Of a stretch of 64,000 bases of DNA, positions 54,678-59,977 are shown piece after piece. Under the pieces are notes generated by a model. That model saw only the letters and a list, made by a program, of their open reading frames with translations. It did no database searches and was not told the origin of the DNA. A program made the position numbers and the translations under genes. This stretch comes from an uncultured Fibrobacter sp. (lineage in GTDB: Bacteria > Fibrobacterota > Fibrobacteria > Fibrobacterales > Fibrobacteraceae): contig NZ_CAMVDO010000001.1 in the NCBI RefSeq assembly GCF_947166265.1, positions 1-64,000 of the forward strand. The letters run 5' to 3'. Every line of letters starts with the position of its first letter. Position 1 is the first letter of the stretch.

Positions 54678-56273
54678 TTACGAATTCGTCGCTGTGGCGA
54701 CTTCTTCGATCTTCTTGAGGACGGAACCGTCTTCCATGGCCTTCATGGCCTTGTCGAAGCCTTCCTTGATGCTGGTTGCCTTCTTGCTGATGTAGAGGGC
54801 GGCACCGGCGTTCAGGGCGCAGGCGTACTTGATGCCCGGGCGGCCCTTGCCGTTCAGCACGTCGAGAGCGAGGTTGAAGTTGTCGACACCCGTACCGCCG
54901 GCGAGGTCTTCGGGGTCCACAGCCGGGACGCCGAATTCCTTCGGATCGATGCGGTATTCGCGATATTCACCGTCTTCGAGGATTTCGGCAATGGTCGTCG
55001 GGACGCACGGAGAGATTTCGTCGTAGCCGTCGTCGGAGATGGCGACCATCACGCGCTTGGCACCGAGGGACTTTGCAGCCTTGGTGAACGGTTCCAGAAT
55101 CGACTTGCTGTAAACGCCGAGCATCAGGTACTTGGCTTCGGCCGGGTTCGTGAGGGGGCCGAGCAGGTTCATGATGGTTTTGACGCCGAGGGCACCGCGA
55201 ACCGGGCCTGCAAAACGCATGGCGCTGTGATAGACCGGAGCCATGAGGAACACGAAGTTCGTCTTGTCGATGACAGAGGCTGCCTTTTCCGGAGTCATGT
55301 CGAGCTTGAAGCCCGCTGCAGTGTAGAAGTCTGCAGCACCGGACTTGCTGGAAACAGCGCGGTTACCGTGCTTGGCCACCTTGGCGCCACAGCTTGCAGC
55401 GATAAGGCCAGAGAGCGAGCTCACGTTGAAGCTACCCTTGCCGTCGCCACCGGTACCCACGATGTCGGTGAGTTCGTCACCGCTGTACGGGAACTTGCGC
55501 TTCTTGCTGCTGAGCACCTTGGCGCAGCCTGCAATTTCTTCGGTCACGGGACCCTTGCTGGAAAGGGCGGTAAGGATAGCGGCCATCTGGCGTTCGTCCA
55601 TGATACCGTCGGTCAGGTCTTCCATGAACATTTCGGCAGTTTCGCGGCTCAGGTCCTTGCCTGCGGTAAGCGTGTTCAGGATTCCGCGGATATCGAGCGG
55701 TTCACGGCGGTAGTTGAGGAAAGCCTTGAAGAATTCGTCGGCGCGACCGCTGGCGATAGATTCCGGGTGGAACTGCACGCCTTCAATCGGGAGCTTCTTG
55801 TGACGAATGCCCATGATGTCGCCGTCGGTCGCGCGGGCGGTCACTTCGAAGTCAGAAGAGAGCGTCGATTCGTCGATGACCAAGCTGTGGTAACGCGTGA
55901 AGATGTTCTTCTTGCCGATGGTGCGGAAGAGGCCCTTGCCGTCGAGGTCGATTTCTTCGGCGATGCCGTGCTTGATGAACTTGGCCTGCACAATCTTTGC
56001 GCCGAAAGCGTAACCGATGGCCTGATGGCCGAGGCAAACGCCCAAAATCGGGAGCTTTCCCGCAAAGTGCTTGATGGCTTCCACGGATATGCCGGCATCT
56101 TCGGGGCGGCCCGGGCCCGGACTCACGATGAGGCGGCTCGGATTCAGCTTTTCGATGTCGGCAATGGTGCATTCGCGGCTACGGAGCACGCGGATTTCTT
56201 CAGTGGTAATCTTGGCCAACGCCTGATAAACGTTGTAAGTAAAAGAGTCGTAGTTATCGATAATGACGATCAT
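54678..56273 (-). CDS. trpGD: Fused anthranilate synthase glutaminase / anthranilate phosphoribosyltransferase TrpGD
   Basis: The 531-residue fusion does two early steps of tryptophan synthesis. The glutaminase (TrpG) domain, residues 1-190, has SPGPGRPEDAG, the nucleophile in LGVCLGHQAIGYAFG (Cys79) and the His/Glu pair in VQFHPES. The phosphoribosyltransferase (TrpD) domain, about 200-531, has DIVGTGGDGKGSFNVSS and AAKVAKHGNRAVSSKSGAAD-like sequence with the PRPP-binding GTGGDG loop. The same fusion order is known in enterobacteria. The strong codon bias is like that of tkt. It lies 174 bp downstream of trpE with repeats between. trpC, trpF, trpB and trpA are not in the window. Confidence 0.95.
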   Translation of the reverse strand: MIVIIDNYDSFTYNVYQALAKITTEEIRVLRSRECTIADIEKLNPSRLIVSPGPGRPEDAGISVEAIKHFAGKLPILGVCLGHQAIGYAFGAKIVQAKFIKHGIAEEIDLDGKGLFRTIGKKNIFTRYHSLVIDESTLSSDFEVTARATDGDIMGIRHKKLPIEGVQFHPESIASGRADEFFKAFLNYRREPLDIRGILNTLTAGKDLSRETAEMFMEDLTDGIMDERQMAAILTALSSKGPVTEEIAGCAKVLSSKKRKFPYSGDELTDIVGTGGDGKGSFNVSSLSGLIAASCGAKVAKHGNRAVSSKSGAADFYTAAGFKLDMTPEKAASVIDKTNFVFLMAPVYHSAMRFAGPVRGALGVKTIMNLLGPLTNPAEAKYLMLGVYSKSILEPFTKAAKSLGAKRVMVAISDDGYDEISPCVPTTIAEILEDGEYREYRIDPKEFGVPAVDPEDLAGGTGVDNFNLALDVLNGKGRPGIKYACALNAGAALYISKKATSIKEGFDKAMKAMEDGSVLKKIEEVATATNS

Positions 56274-56447
56274 AGTAAAACTCAGTGGTTAGTGGTTAGT
56301 GATTAGTGGTTAGGAGGTATGAGCCCGCTTCGCTTTGAGGTATGAGGTCGTTCATGTCTTCGACATTCACTTTGAGCTTTTTATAGTCGCAGCTTCGCTG
56401 CCAAAATATTACTCATTGCTCACTGCTCATTGCTCACTGCTATTCGT
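56274..56447. repeat. Repeat-rich trpE-trpGD spacer
   Basis: TTAGTGGTTAGTGATTAGTG (56287-56316 region) matches the heptamers at 48723. It is followed by TATGAGCCCGCTTCGCTTTG plus AGGTATGAGG words, related to those at 21797 and 57929, and by CATTGCTCACTGCTCATTGC (near 56414). No gene is seen. Confidence 0.7.
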
Positions 56448-57896
56448 CTAATTCTCCCCCTCCAGTACAGCCCTGATTGCTCCGAGCTTTTCATTCGTTT
56501 CTTCAAATTCGCGGTCGGCGTTGCTGGCCGCGACAATGCCACCACCGGCCTGCAGGCTGATGGTCTTACCCTGCTTGAGGCAGCAACGGATAGCGATGCA
56601 GAAATCCAAATCGCCGTCGGATTCCATGTAACCTACTGCACCAGCGTAGAAGCGACGCTTGACCTTTTCGAGGCCAGAAAGGATTTCGATAGCGCTGATT
56701 TTCGGGGCACCGCTCACCGTACCTGCCGGGAAGCTGGAGCGCAGCACTTCAATCGCCTTCTTGGTCTTGGAAACCTTGCCCTGCACGTCAGAGACCAGGT
56801 GAATCACGTGGCTGAACTTTTCGCATTCCATGTACTTGGTGGTTTCCACCGTACCGGCTTCGCAGACGCGGCCAAGGTCATTACGGGCCAGGTCCACGAG
56901 CATCAAGTGTTCGGCGCGTTCCTTCGGGTCACCCTTCAGGTTCTTCATCAGGGCTTCATCTTCTACATCATCCTTGCCGCGGCGGCGAGTGCCTGCAATC
57001 GGATGAATCGTCGCGATACCATCACGCACACGTACCAGGCTTTCCGGCGAAGCACCGATAAACTGGTGCGTACCGTAATCGAGGAAGAACATGTACGGAG
57101 ACGGGTTCACCGTGCGGAGGCGGCGGTAAATGTCAAGCGCTTCGATATCGCTTGCGAACTGGATGCGGCGAGAAGGCACGGCCTGCACAATGTTACCAGC
57201 AATGATATGCTTCTGCAAAGCTTCGACCTTTTCCACGTATTCCTTGCGGGACTGTTCCAGGTCGGTCATCGTGATGCCCTTGCCGTACTGCTGTTCCGGG
57301 GCGAGGTAGCTGAAGTCGAGGTCAGCGAGGCGAGCCTTCACCTTTTCAATCGCGGCCTTCAAATCAATCTGGTGTTCTTCGTAGTTCAGGGCGAACAGGT
57401 GAAGCTTTTCGGTAAAGTGGTCAAACACAATGTAGATGTGACCCACCAGGAATTCCGCTTCAGGAATGTTGAGTTCGTCCACCTGCGGGGCAAGGCGAAT
57501 GGTATCGCAACGGGCGCAGAATTCGTAACCGAGGTAGCCCACGCCCGAAGACGGAATAGGAATCTGGTTAGGCGGCACCGTATTTTCCGCAGAAATGAGC
57601 GTCAGGGCGTCCAAAATATCGCCCTCGCCTTCCTTCAGGAACACGCTTTCCTTACCGTCGACAACGATGCTCACGTCCTTTTCATTCTGGCGCAGACGGA
57701 AACCTTCGTCCACCATCAGGGTCGAATAACGGCTACGACCGTGGGAGAAACTTGCGGATTCAAAGATTGCCTTCGCACCGAGCTTCTTGCCGAGCGAAAA
57801 CGGGGTGTAACGTTCACCGGGCAGCGCCACGTAGATACTGTCGGTACGGGGTTCGAAGTTAGGGCTTTCAGTAATGTGCCTTATGTTCGTTGTCAT
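56448..57896 (-). CDS. trpE: Anthranilate synthase component I
   Basis: TrpE converts chorismate plus ammonia (from TrpG) to anthranilate. The protein has 482 residues. The chorismate-binding core is complete: NPSPYMFFLDY, GASPESLVRVRDG, HPIAGTRRRGKD, HLMLVDLARNDLGRVCEAGT, FPAGTVSGAPKISAIEIL and GAVGYMESDGDLDFCIAIR. An N-terminal FESASFSHGRSRYS segment probably forms the tryptophan feedback site. GAGG lies 9 nt before the ATG. Transcription is expected to be controlled by the attenuator 180-310 nt upstream. Confidence 0.96.
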   Translation of the reverse strand: MTTNIRHITESPNFEPRTDSIYVALPGERYTPFSLGKKLGAKAIFESASFSHGRSRYSTLMVDEGFRLRQNEKDVSIVVDGKESVFLKEGEGDILDALTLISAENTVPPNQIPIPSSGVGYLGYEFCARCDTIRLAPQVDELNIPEAEFLVGHIYIVFDHFTEKLHLFALNYEEHQIDLKAAIEKVKARLADLDFSYLAPEQQYGKGITMTDLEQSRKEYVEKVEALQKHIIAGNIVQAVPSRRIQFASDIEALDIYRRLRTVNPSPYMFFLDYGTHQFIGASPESLVRVRDGIATIHPIAGTRRRGKDDVEDEALMKNLKGDPKERAEHLMLVDLARNDLGRVCEAGTVETTKYMECEKFSHVIHLVSDVQGKVSKTKKAIEVLRSSFPAGTVSGAPKISAIEILSGLEKVKRRFYAGAVGYMESDGDLDFCIAIRCCLKQGKTISLQAGGGIVAASNADREFEETNEKLGAIRAVLEGEN

Positions 57897-58071
57897 TTTT
57901 AATCCTCTGGTTTTAAAAAGGTTTAGGGTATGAGGTCGCTCGCAAGCTCGCTTTGAGGTTTAATGAATTGACATCTCAAGAGCAACGAGGGCTATATCCA
58001 TTCTGTTTAAACTTTTGCGTTCCTTGGTTTAGGGTTCCGCAAAGGCTTAGGTCCCGGAGGATTTCGATATT
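57897..58071 (-). other. trpE leader, distal part
   Basis: This is the 175-nt stretch between the attenuator and trpE. It holds a TGAGG-type dispersed repeat (57929-57960, with GCTCGCAAGCTCGC as a small palindrome) and the trpE ribosome-binding sequence. No gene is seen. Confidence 0.5.
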
Positions 58072-58105
58072 AAAAAAGGAAGGCCTCCGTGAGTCCGGAA
58101 GCCTT
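58072..58105 (-). terminator. trp attenuator terminator
   Basis: On the minus strand AAGGCTTCCG-GACTCA-CGGAGGCCTT, a 10-bp stem with one G-T wobble, is followed by CCTTTTTT. Its left arm and loop (CCGGACTC) can instead pair with GAGCCCGG at 58139-58146 in 7 of 8 positions, giving an antiterminator. GGACTCTA next to the Trp codons can in turn pair with TAGAGCCC. Confidence 0.88.
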
Positions 58106-58150
58106 TGCTTTAAAATCTTGGGTGATTTGCGACAAATACCGGGCTCTATG

Positions 58151-58207
58151 TTAGAGTCCGCGCCACCAACGACGATTAAGGGTTGCTGTTGTCACAAAGT
58201 TCATCAT
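58151..58207 (-). CDS. trpL: trp operon leader peptide
   Basis: A 17- or 18-codon frame starts at tandem in-frame ATGs (58207 or 58204) and reads (M)MNFVTTATLNRRWWRGL before TAA. The two adjacent TGG codons (58163-58168) sit just before the segment that forms the first attenuator hairpin, the classical design for stalling on uncharged tRNA-Trp. A TATTTTTA box ends 4 nt before the first ATG, so the leader peptide itself should be translated from a near-leaderless mRNA. The peptide has no role beyond control. The stop is 46 nt before the terminator stem. Confidence 0.88.
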   Translation of the reverse strand: MMNFVTTATLNRRWWRGL

Positions 58208-58211
58208 ACCA

Positions 58212-58219
58212 TAAAAATA
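58212..58219 (-). promoter_or_regulatory. -7 box of the trp operon
   Basis: Minus-strand TATTTTTA ends 4 nt before the first ATG of the leader peptide. Confidence 0.55.
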
Positions 58220-58390
58220 CCAATCAAAAAAGCAGATGGCAAGGGGTTCTCCATAAATTTTCGTAAAAAAACAAATTATTTTTCAAATTCGGCAAAAAAG
58301 TACACCCTCCTATCACACATTTTTGCCCCTTAGTTGCAAGGTTTGCGTCATTTATATATATTCTTATAGATACAAGGAAGGAATAGAGGT

Positions 58391-59140
58391 ATGTTCTATA
58401 AGCATTGGAAAAAGATCGCTCTTGCACTAACTGGGTACTTTTGGGCAGGTTGTGAAAACGACACCACCTCTGCTAACGAAGCCGAAGATCCTAGTTCCAG
58501 TAGCATTGTAACCCCCAAGTCCAGTTCTAGCGTAAAACGGACCCCGGCATCCAGTTCCAGCGAAGCTTCCAGCAAGAAAAAGAATTCTAGCTCTAGCACA
58601 GCCACCGATAAAAAAGGGAAATCCAGTTCTAGCGCAGCTACCGACAAAAAACAAGGTTCCAGCTCCTCTGAAGCGACCAACCCCGAAAGCTCCAGCAACG
58701 AATTCGAAATGATTATGCCGTTGTACGGCATCGAAATGAGCAAAACCATTTGCACCCAGGTAAAAGGTGATTCTACCATAAACTGCGGCGACGGCGTGAC
58801 CTGTACAGAAAAAATCGCCACGCAAATGATGGCGCCCCCCTGCAGTGTTGAAAAAAATGAAAAAGGCGAATTCACCACAATCTGTCCCGATTATGGAATT
58901 GTGCGAATTTCCGATAGCACCTACGAATGCGACGGAAAGGTTTATAGCGAAGCCGAATTCAAAGCCCGTTATATGACAACGATTATCGAAGGCAATCCCC
59001 AAGACCCGCCAAAGGAAGACACTATCAAAGTAGAGCCCATTACCGACACCCTCTTCTTTAAGGATTCCTCCTTTATGCAGCCCGCCCTTTACGGCCCTCC
59101 CTGCGTTTTCAACGGCACCTGTGGCGACAAGGAAGAATAA
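58391..59140 (+). CDS. Ser-rich lipoprotein, candidate rSAM/lipoprotein-system substrate 1
   Basis: The protein has 249 residues. The first ten (MFYKHWKKIA) are identical to those of the next gene's product. The lipobox YFWAGC gives Cys21. Residues 30-103 are a Ser-rich flexible linker with five SSSS-type clusters, after which there are eight further cysteines. Tyr-Gly motifs occur as PLYGIE (110-115), DYGIV (167-171) and ALYGPPC (232-238). YGxP-type motifs are a feature I recall for radical-SAM-associated lipoproteins of Bacteroides. GAGG lies just before the ATG. It is the first gene of a probable three-gene operon that ends with a radical SAM enzyme. A cell-surface location is likely. Confidence 0.82.
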   Translation: MFYKHWKKIALALTGYFWAGCENDTTSANEAEDPSSSSIVTPKSSSSVKRTPASSSSEASSKKKNSSSSTATDKKGKSSSSAATDKKQGSSSSEATNPESSSNEFEMIMPLYGIEMSKTICTQVKGDSTINCGDGVTCTEKIATQMMAPPCSVEKNEKGEFTTICPDYGIVRISDSTYECDGKVYSEAEFKARYMTTIIEGNPQDPPKEDTIKVEPITDTLFFKDSSFMQPALYGPPCVFNGTCGDKEE

Positions 59141-59158: not shown

Positions 59159-59977
59159 ATGTTCTACAAACACTGGAAAAAAATAGCACTCACGTTGACC
59201 GCCTTCTTCTGGGCAAGTTGCGATGATTCCTCCTCCGCCGAGGCGGAATGCCTGTACGGGCCACCTCCGGAATACCAAAGTAGCGATTCGAACGACGCTT
59301 CATCTAGCGCAACCAGGGTGAAGAACCAGTCGAGTTCCAGCAAGACAAAAGAAACGTCAAGCGCTAGCAACAAAAGCGTTTCTTCTAGCTCCAAGGAGCA
59401 AAAAAACAAGGACTCCAGTTCCTCCGAAGCGACCGAGCCCAAAAGTTCAAGCAGCAAAACAAGCAAGGTCAAGTCGAGCTCCAGCGAGGAATTTTTCAAT
59501 CCGCCAGTTTACGGAGATGAACCCGTATTCGGAGAATCCAGTTCCAGCGAGGTAACGTGCGTCCCCGTGGATTCTTCCGTCGCATACTTCCAATTGGATT
59601 ACTCCGCAGAGCACTACAAGCGTAACGCCCAAGAAAACGCAAAACACGCGAGCGTTGCCAAAATCGACAGCATCATGCAGACTTTACAGGAAGTCCCGAC
59701 TTGCCTACAAAATCTGCGTATGCAGCTGGATATGTTTGTAGCACTTTATGGCGCCCCGACCATCATCACGAACGCGGTAGAATCTTGCAGCGATGGCACC
59801 ACCAGGCCCAGCGAAGAATACGCCAAGTTCCTTAAGATGAAAGAAGAATGGGAAAAGAACAAGCCCGCCCTGGATGAAGAGCTCAAGCAAATTTACGACG
59901 ACAAAATAAAGGACATCGAACAGCAGGTCAACCAGTGCCTCAATAGTTCTGAAACCGAAGAACAGAAGGGAAAATAA
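59159..59977 (+). CDS. Ser-rich lipoprotein, candidate rSAM/lipoprotein-system substrate 2
   Basis: The protein has 272 residues and is a paralogue of the preceding product: same MFYKHWKKIA start and the lipobox FFWASC with Cys21. Three YGxP motifs are present: CLYGPPP (31-37), PVYGDEP (116-122) and ALYGAPT (195-201). A Ser/Lys-rich linker (45-110) separates the first two. The C-terminal 130 residues are helical and charged (EHYKRNAQENAKHASVAKI and KMKEEWEKNKPALDEELKQ), with Cys at 134, 182, 210 and near 266. GGAGGAG is 4 nt before the ATG, and the gap to the previous gene is 18 bp. It could be a modified surface peptide carrier. Confidence 0.82.
   Translation: MFYKHWKKIALTLTAFFWASCDDSSSAEAECLYGPPPEYQSSDSNDASSSATRVKNQSSSSKTKETSSASNKSVSSSSKEQKNKDSSSSEATEPKSSSSKTSKVKSSSSEEFFNPPVYGDEPVFGESSSSEVTCVPVDSSVAYFQLDYSAEHYKRNAQENAKHASVAKIDSIMQTLQEVPTCLQNLRMQLDMFVALYGAPTIITNAVESCSDGTTRPSEEYAKFLKMKEEWEKNKPALDEELKQIYDDKIKDIEQQVNQCLNSSETEEQKGK

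What the first reader, a model, noticed from the sequence alone, without database searches (positions are those of the whole stretch)
58072..58219. Complete trp attenuator with a leaderless leader peptide
A 17-18 codon peptide with tandem Trp codons (RRWWRGL) precedes four pairing segments: GGACTCTA:TAGAGCCC, the antiterminator GAGCCCGG:CCGGACTC, and the terminator AAGGCTTCCG:CGGAGGCCTT followed by CCTTTTTT. The design matches proteobacterial trp attenuation, but the leader ATG lies only 4 nt after a TATTTTTA box. Ribosome stalling on an mRNA that starts at its own start codon is mechanistically unusual, and attenuation is little described in this phylum.
Basis: partly seen in the sequence, partly recalled or inferred. 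Interest (0 to 1): 0.7.

Follow-up and report, generated by a model that had tools for sequence, protein, structure and literature searches.

The report
Leaderless trp attenuator in Fibrobacter
In front of its first tryptophan-making gene this gut bacterium carries a classic RNA switch, in which a ribosome reading a tiny tryptophan-rich peptide decides whether the gene is transcribed; the peptide's start codon appears to be the very first letters of the RNA, and the same design is conserved across its relatives and repeated at two other amino-acid genes.

Summary
On the minus strand, upstream of trpE, lie a promoter (TTGCCA-N17-TATTTT), an 18-codon leader ORF with tandem Trp codons, mutually exclusive hairpins and an intrinsic terminator: a ribosome-mediated trp attenuator of Fibrobacter. 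69 of 72 Fibrobacter-type trpE loci carry a WW(W) leader; the other three loci (two genomes) have trpE moved behind trpBA, under a second attenuator. The antiterminator and terminator helices covary. In 54 of 54 distinct leaders the ATG lies 6-8 nt after the -10 box, so the leader mRNA is very probably leaderless. The same layout precedes leader peptides of trpB (MKMNSAIRFNRWWWGSTK) and leuA (MMKKNLRLINLLGRCAGAQAGF) in the same genome, both conserved in the genus. WW leaders occur in 13 of 18 trpE upstream regions sampled from other genera of the family and order, and convincingly in 0 of 22 more distant ones. Leaderless leader peptides are not mechanistically new: they are reported for Sinorhizobium meliloti trpL and Streptomyces lividans trpL1/leuL1. 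What looks new is the phylum, the deep conservation, and three leaderless attenuators in one genome. No transcript data were available, so start site and termination are inferred.

The parts
58237..58242 (-). -35 box TTGCCA of the trpL-trpE promoter
   Evidence: TTGCCA/TTGACA/TTGCCG in 54 of 54 distinct leaders
58214..58219 (-). -10 box TATTTT, spacer 17, ending 6 nt before the leader ATG
   Evidence: a TANNTT hexamer at spacer 17 (52) or 18 (2) in 54 of 54
58151..58207 (-). leader peptide ORF MMNFVTTATLNRRWWRGL*, predicted leaderless
   Evidence: WW leader in 69 of 72 Fibrobacter-type trpE loci
58163..58168 (-). tandem Trp codons TGGTGG, the stalling site
58152..58159 (-). segment 1 (GGACTCTA), overlapping the last leader codons and stop
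   Evidence: 1:2 hairpin z = -3.0
58139..58148 (-). segment 2 (TAGAGCCCGG)
   Evidence: pairs with 1 or 3, covariation of 2:3
58091..58105 (-). segment 3 (AAGGCTTCCGGACTC)
   Evidence: pairs with 2 (antiterminator) or 4 (terminator)
58080..58089 (-). segment 4 (CGGAGGCCTT)
58072..58079 (-). U tract CCTTTTTT of the intrinsic terminator
57904..57908 (-). Shine-Dalgarno-like AGAGG of trpE, in contrast to the leader, which has none
   Evidence: read directly
56448..57896 (-). trpE, anthranilate synthase component I
   Evidence: TIGR00564 E = 1.1e-142, 476 bits against a cut-off of 518, so below the curated cut-off but the best match
54678..56273 (-). trpGD, bifunctional amidotransferase / anthranilate phosphoribosyltransferase
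   Evidence: NF011201, 797.6 bits over the cut-off of 670

Best explanation
This is a ribosome-mediated transcription attenuator of trpE-trpGD. RNA polymerase starts at or next to the A of the leader AUG, and a ribosome loads directly on the 5' AUG of the nascent RNA. If charged tRNA-Trp is scarce, the ribosome stalls at the two Trp codons, covers segment 1, and frees segment 2 to pair with segment 3 (antiterminator), so transcription continues into trpE. If Trp is plentiful, the ribosome runs to the stop codon just before segment 2, the 2:3 pairing is blocked, 3:4 forms, and transcription ends at 58072. Without translation, 1:2 and 3:4 form and transcription also stops. Shown by sequence and comparison: leader frame, Trp codons, alternative helices, covariation of 2:3 and 3:4, conserved promoter spacing. 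Inferred: start site, leaderless initiation, stalling and termination.
For: WW leader in 69 of 72 Fibrobacter-type trpE loci. The three exceptions are two genomes in which trpE follows trpB-trpA, and there a WWW leader precedes trpB (gene names). 54 of 54 distinct leaders have -35, spacer 17-18, -10, then ATG 6 (34), 7 (18) or 8 (2) nt later. Terminator 3:4: 97.6% of cells paired against 93.0% in shuffles, 14 cells with changes on both sides against 2.3, 0 of 500 shuffles as high. Antiterminator 2:3: 84.4% against 79.5%, 4 pairs with double changes against 1.1, 0 of 500. With segment 1 masked and segment 4 not yet complete, the predicted minimum-energy fold is 2:3; it switches to 3:4 once segment 4 is complete. 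Divergent leaders (..NNWWWRTSKSEYAC..FWWWQAL..NNNWWWQTQ) keep the design with different stem letters.
Against: No RNA data: start site, stalling and termination are predicted. The 1:2 helix is not supported by covariation in alignment A1 (81.8% paired against 80.7%, 22 of 500 shuffles as high; pairs with changes on both sides reached by 80 of 500), partly because divergent rows are out of register there. A start site 1-5 nt upstream of the AUG cannot be excluded from sequence. The full-length leader's predicted fold pairs early leader codons (58198-58191) with 58133-58126, which would compete with the canonical folds if translation lags.
Confidence: 0.88

Rival explanations
1. It is a real trp attenuator but not leaderless: transcription starts upstream (for example at the weaker TTGAAA-N18-GAAAAT match) and the ribosome initiates by some other signal or from an upstream start in the open frame.
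For: One search lists another promoter-like match at 58286-58257 (9 of 12). In some relatives the leader frame stays open far upstream, giving longer ORFs with GTG or TTG starts.
Against: The -35, -10 and ATG register at 6-8 nt is kept in 54 of 54 distinct trpE leaders and in 27 trpB leaders, while sequence further upstream varies. Conservation of the upstream GAAAAT site was not tested formally.
Confidence: 0.1
2. The hairpin is only an ordinary terminator between genes, with a chance small ORF, and trpE has its own promoter downstream.
For: A strong intrinsic terminator lies about 175 nt before trpE.
Against: No promoter-like site was found between terminator and trpE on the minus strand. 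The small ORF and the 2:3 and 3:4 helices are conserved and covary. The same module sits before trpB in the same genome.
Confidence: 0.02
3. Another tryptophan sensor (T-box RNA or TRAP-like protein) acts on this terminator, the peptide being incidental.
For: Both are known to control trp genes elsewhere (TRAP: search listing; T-box: general knowledge).
Against: No Rfam family, T-box included, reaches its gathering score; the best chance hit is Phe_leader at 18.8 bits (cut-off 55), because of the terminator. TRAP triplet repeats were not counted. Trp codons are kept in the divergent leaders.
Confidence: 0.02

Closest known systems
Escherichia coli trpL attenuator (recalled; no call)
   Same: Tandem Trp codons three sense codons before the leader stop (WWRTS* against WWRGL*), four segments with 1:2, 2:3 and 3:4 pairing, about 140-nt terminated leader (136 nt here if the start is 58207).
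   Different: E. coli trpL has an untranslated leader with a Shine-Dalgarno site and is also TrpR-repressed; here the start codon is at the predicted transcript start. Different phylum, no sequence homology tested.
Sinorhizobium meliloti trpL (rnTrpL/peTrpL), PMC7298713 (passages read)
   Same: Attenuator RNA whose 5' end is the ATG of the Trp-rich leader ORF upstream of trpE(G).
   Different: Alphaproteobacterium; trans functions of RNA and peptide shown there, untested here. In S. meliloti only trpE(G) of three trp operons is attenuated; here both trpE and trpB have leaders.
Streptomyces lividans trpL1 (trpE) and leuL1 (leuA), PMC8079986 (passages read)
   Same: Leaderless leader peptides with WWW before trpE and LLLL before leuA in one genome.
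   Different: Actinobacterium; leuL1 lacks an intrinsic terminator there, whereas the Fibrobacter leuA leaders are followed by a G+C-rich hairpin and T run.

Membership tests
Ribosome-mediated trp attenuator | Short leader ORF with tandem Trp codons upstream of a trp gene | tested here: met
   (69 of 72 Fibrobacter-type loci)
Ribosome-mediated trp attenuator | Intrinsic terminator between leader ORF and structural gene | tested here: met
Ribosome-mediated trp attenuator | Mutually exclusive antiterminator 2:3 | tested here: met
Ribosome-mediated trp attenuator | Anti-antiterminator / pause hairpin 1:2 | tested here: inconclusive
   folds with z = -3.0 and is predicted in the divergent leaders folded, but covariation does not exceed shuffles
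Ribosome-mediated trp attenuator | Trp-dependent read-through | not testable with these tools
   needs RNA measurements
Leaderless leader peptide (S. meliloti trpL type) | Promoter places transcription start at the leader AUG | tested here: met
   6-8 nt from -10 to ATG in 54 of 54 distinct leaders; sequence prediction only
Leaderless leader peptide (S. meliloti trpL type) | Mapped 5' end at the AUG | not testable with these tools
   needs 5' RACE or dRNA-seq
Any Rfam 15 family (Trp leader or T-box included) | Covariance-model match over the gathering score | tested here: not met
   none of the 7 listed matches reaches its cut-off, and neither a Trp leader nor a T-box is among them

The most novel reading that the evidence does not exclude
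Leaderless initiation is a selected design rule of amino-acid attenuators in Fibrobacteraceae: trpE, trpB and leuA leaders all start at their own AUG, so that a ribosome with initiator tRNA loads as soon as the 5' end emerges. Attenuation would then report not only on the amino acid but also on the cell's capacity for leaderless initiation, a second input that leadered attenuators lack. The released leader RNAs might also act in trans, as in S. meliloti.
Probability: 0.2. Interest if true: 0.6.

Novelty: new member of a known kind. Interest (0 to 1): 0.42.

Why it matters
It extends leader-peptide attenuation to Fibrobacterota, a phylum for which these searches of an open-access library found no report, and shows the leaderless version as a conserved layout of a whole bacterial family rather than an oddity. 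Three leaderless attenuators in one genome, and two genomes where trpE has moved from its own attenuator to that of trpB, make a compact system for asking how ribosomes couple to RNA polymerase when there is no 5' untranslated region. It also names a handle for tryptophan and leucine regulation in a rumen cellulose degrader.

Tried and rejected
Rfam gave nothing above threshold. hisG, ilvB and pheA of the same genome were examined for leaders: no leader peptide was recognised upstream of hisG (a short gene precedes it), ilvB or pheA, so attenuation is not universal there. Treponema-type TrpE homologues (57-65% identical): 0 of 38 loci had a WW leader; three of these had under 200 nt upstream. 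Distant Fibrobacterota: 123 of 150 genomes searched had a TrpE match and I fetched 40 upstream regions. 13 of the 18 within the family and order had a WW leader. In the 22 beyond the order none was convincing; L145 and L150 gave stray WW ORFs without the promoter, and L143 held only 134 bases. The five misses within the family have a TrpE only 35-39% identical. trpB leader: 27 of 30 loci; L185 and L188 lie at contig ends, L167 shows none. leuA leader: 23 of 30 by the strict pattern, the other 7 only with a relaxed promoter pattern. An alternative -10 (TATGAT, 58208-58203, overlapping the ATG) was rejected because relatives lose it (TATGAA, TATGAC) while TANNTT is kept.

The leuA element in the window's genome was found with the promoter-plus-ATG pattern itself, so its leaderlessness is not an independent confirmation of that rule; trpB's leader was also recognised by its WWW frame. 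Structure counting on A1 used 33 sequences, one per distinct 100-nt core of 54 leaders; the divergent rows L059, L060, L066, L072 and L106 are partly out of register for 1:2 there and count as unpaired.

Full report
What is there. The window lies in a Fibrobacter genome (G000; the closest named trpE loci are F. succinogenes and Fibrobacter sp. assemblies). On the minus strand, trpE (57896-56448) is followed by a trpGD fusion (56273-54678). Upstream of trpE the minus strand reads, in order: TTGCCA (58242-58237), 17 nt, TATTTT (58219-58214), 6 nt, ATG (58207), leader ORF MMNFVTTATLNRRWWRGL*, then segments 1 to 4 and a U tract ending at 58072. trpE itself has an AGAGG seven bases before its ATG; the leader has only promoter sequence in that place.

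Is it more than chance. In one genome the pattern scans are weak (terminator-like 1 against 0.5 expected, promoter-like 3 against 0.8), though the folds are good (terminator z = -3.9; 1:2 hairpin z = -3.0; whole leader z = -3.5). Comparison settles it. Of 72 Fibrobacter-type trpE loci (30 and 42 of the 80), 69 carry a short WW or WWW leader upstream. There a leader MKMNSAIRFNRWWWGSRT precedes trpB. The gene names were checked: trpCF, trpB and trpA, with trpB and trpA over their curated cut-offs and trpCF below it.

The alternative structures. In alignment A1 (33 distinct cores) the terminator helix keeps 97.6% of cells paired and has 14 cells with changes on both sides, reached by 0 of 500 shuffles. 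The antiterminator helix keeps 84.4% paired with double changes at 4 of 8 pairs, again 0 of 500. The 1:2 helix is not supported by covariation: 22 of 500 shuffles reach its percentage paired and 189 of 500 its covariation score. It does fold in the window and in divergent leaders. Folding successive lengths of the RNA with segment 1 masked gives 2:3 until segment 4 is nearly complete, then 3:4. This is the order of events that attenuation needs, but it is a prediction from energies.

Leaderless start. In all 54 distinct leaders a -35 of TTGCCA (41), TTGACA (7) or TTGCCG (6) and a TANNTT -10 at spacer 17 (52) or 18 (2) precede the ATG by 6 (34), 7 (18) or 8 (2) nt. From general knowledge of sigma-70 promoters, and from the mostly 5-7 nt spacing measured in S. 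lividans (PMC8079986, passages), this puts the start at or next to the AUG. 27 of 30 trpB loci have the same layout (6-8 nt, spacer 17), among them the window's own genome (contig 20, 14704-14742) with leader MKMNSAIRFNRWWWGSTK and its own 1:2, 2:3 and 3:4 segments.

A third case. A scan of the window's genome for TTGMCR-N17-TANNTT-N(6-8)-ATG gives 19 sites and 0 in the reversed-pattern control. The promoter part alone gives 122 against 34. So start codons at the transcript start are probably a normal, minority feature of this genome. Among the 19 are the trpE and trpB leaders and a leader MMKKNLRLINLLGRCAGAQAGF in front of leuA (2-isopropylmalate synthase), with three CTA codons among four Leu codons and a G+C-rich hairpin plus T run after it. 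Leu-rich leaders occur at 23 of 30 leuA loci by the strict pattern, and at the remaining 7 with a relaxed promoter pattern. Several of the other 19 sites start ordinary long ORFs.

How far it extends. Outside the genus, WW leaders were found in 13 of 18 trpE upstream regions within the family and order and, convincingly, in 0 of 22 beyond. The family misses have a dissimilar TrpE. Treponema-type homologues lack it (0 of 38). The layout is therefore conserved in the Fibrobacteraceae and its order and not shown elsewhere in the phylum; a leader further upstream in a longer operon would have been missed.

What is known. Ribosome-mediated attenuation of trp genes is textbook (general knowledge). 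Leaderless leader peptides are reported: S. meliloti trpL, whose RNA begins with the leader ATG (PMC7298713, passages); S. lividans trpL1, trpL2, leuL1 and leuL2 (PMC8079986, passages); and C. glutamicum ilvBNC is discussed as a leaderless case in which a first hairpin blocks initiation (PMC11857589, passages). A 2010 survey of premature terminators wrote that leader-peptide systems were then known only in Proteobacteria and Actinobacteria and added Firmicutes; it does not mention Fibrobacter (PMC2965389, passages). Searches of the open-access library for Fibrobacter with attenuation and leader peptide, and for Fibrobacterota with attenuation and tryptophan biosynthesis, were empty. Of nine papers holding Fibrobacter and leaderless (listing), the two I looked into by passages did not concern attenuation there. 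Subscription papers were not searched.

Verdict. A genuine trp attenuator with a very probably leaderless leader peptide; a new member of a known kind in a new phylum, made more interesting by its conservation and by the two sister elements at trpB and leuA.

Noticed in passing
G000 contig 20, 14704-14742 and onward (loci L189, L203): Second attenuator in the same genome, before trpB: leader MKMNSAIRFNRWWWGSTK with the same promoter-to-ATG layout, hairpins and terminator.
   Followed up: yes
G000 contig 6, 22392-22429 and onward (L196, L216): Leu-rich leader peptide (CTA-rich) with a leaderless layout and a downstream hairpin before leuA; conserved in the genus.
   Followed up: partly
L117, L118: Two genomes carry leader - trpB - trpA - trpE - trpGD (trpCF upstream, seen in L118): trpE lacks its own attenuator and sits under that of trpB.
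   Followed up: partly
58198-58191 with 58133-58126: Early leader codons can pair with the stretch between segments 2 and 3 (TTTGTGAC:GTCGCAAA) in the full-length fold; a possible block to initiation on a leaderless RNA, not strictly conserved by eye.
   Followed up: no
57919-57964 and about 56310-56345: A short dispersed repeat (GGTATGAGGTCGCTCGCAAGCTCGCTTTGAGGT-like) in the trp intergenic spaces, with further copies on contigs 3, 5, 6, 9 and 14.
   Followed up: no
L074-L116 (Treponema-type loci): Rumen and gut Treponema carry TrpE 57-65% identical to that of Fibrobacter, without the leader; possible gene transfer.
   Followed up: no
58391-59140 and 59159-59977, plus strand: Two tandem, similarly starting (MFYKHWKKIAL), Ser-rich predicted secreted proteins, divergent from the trp leader.
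   Followed up: no
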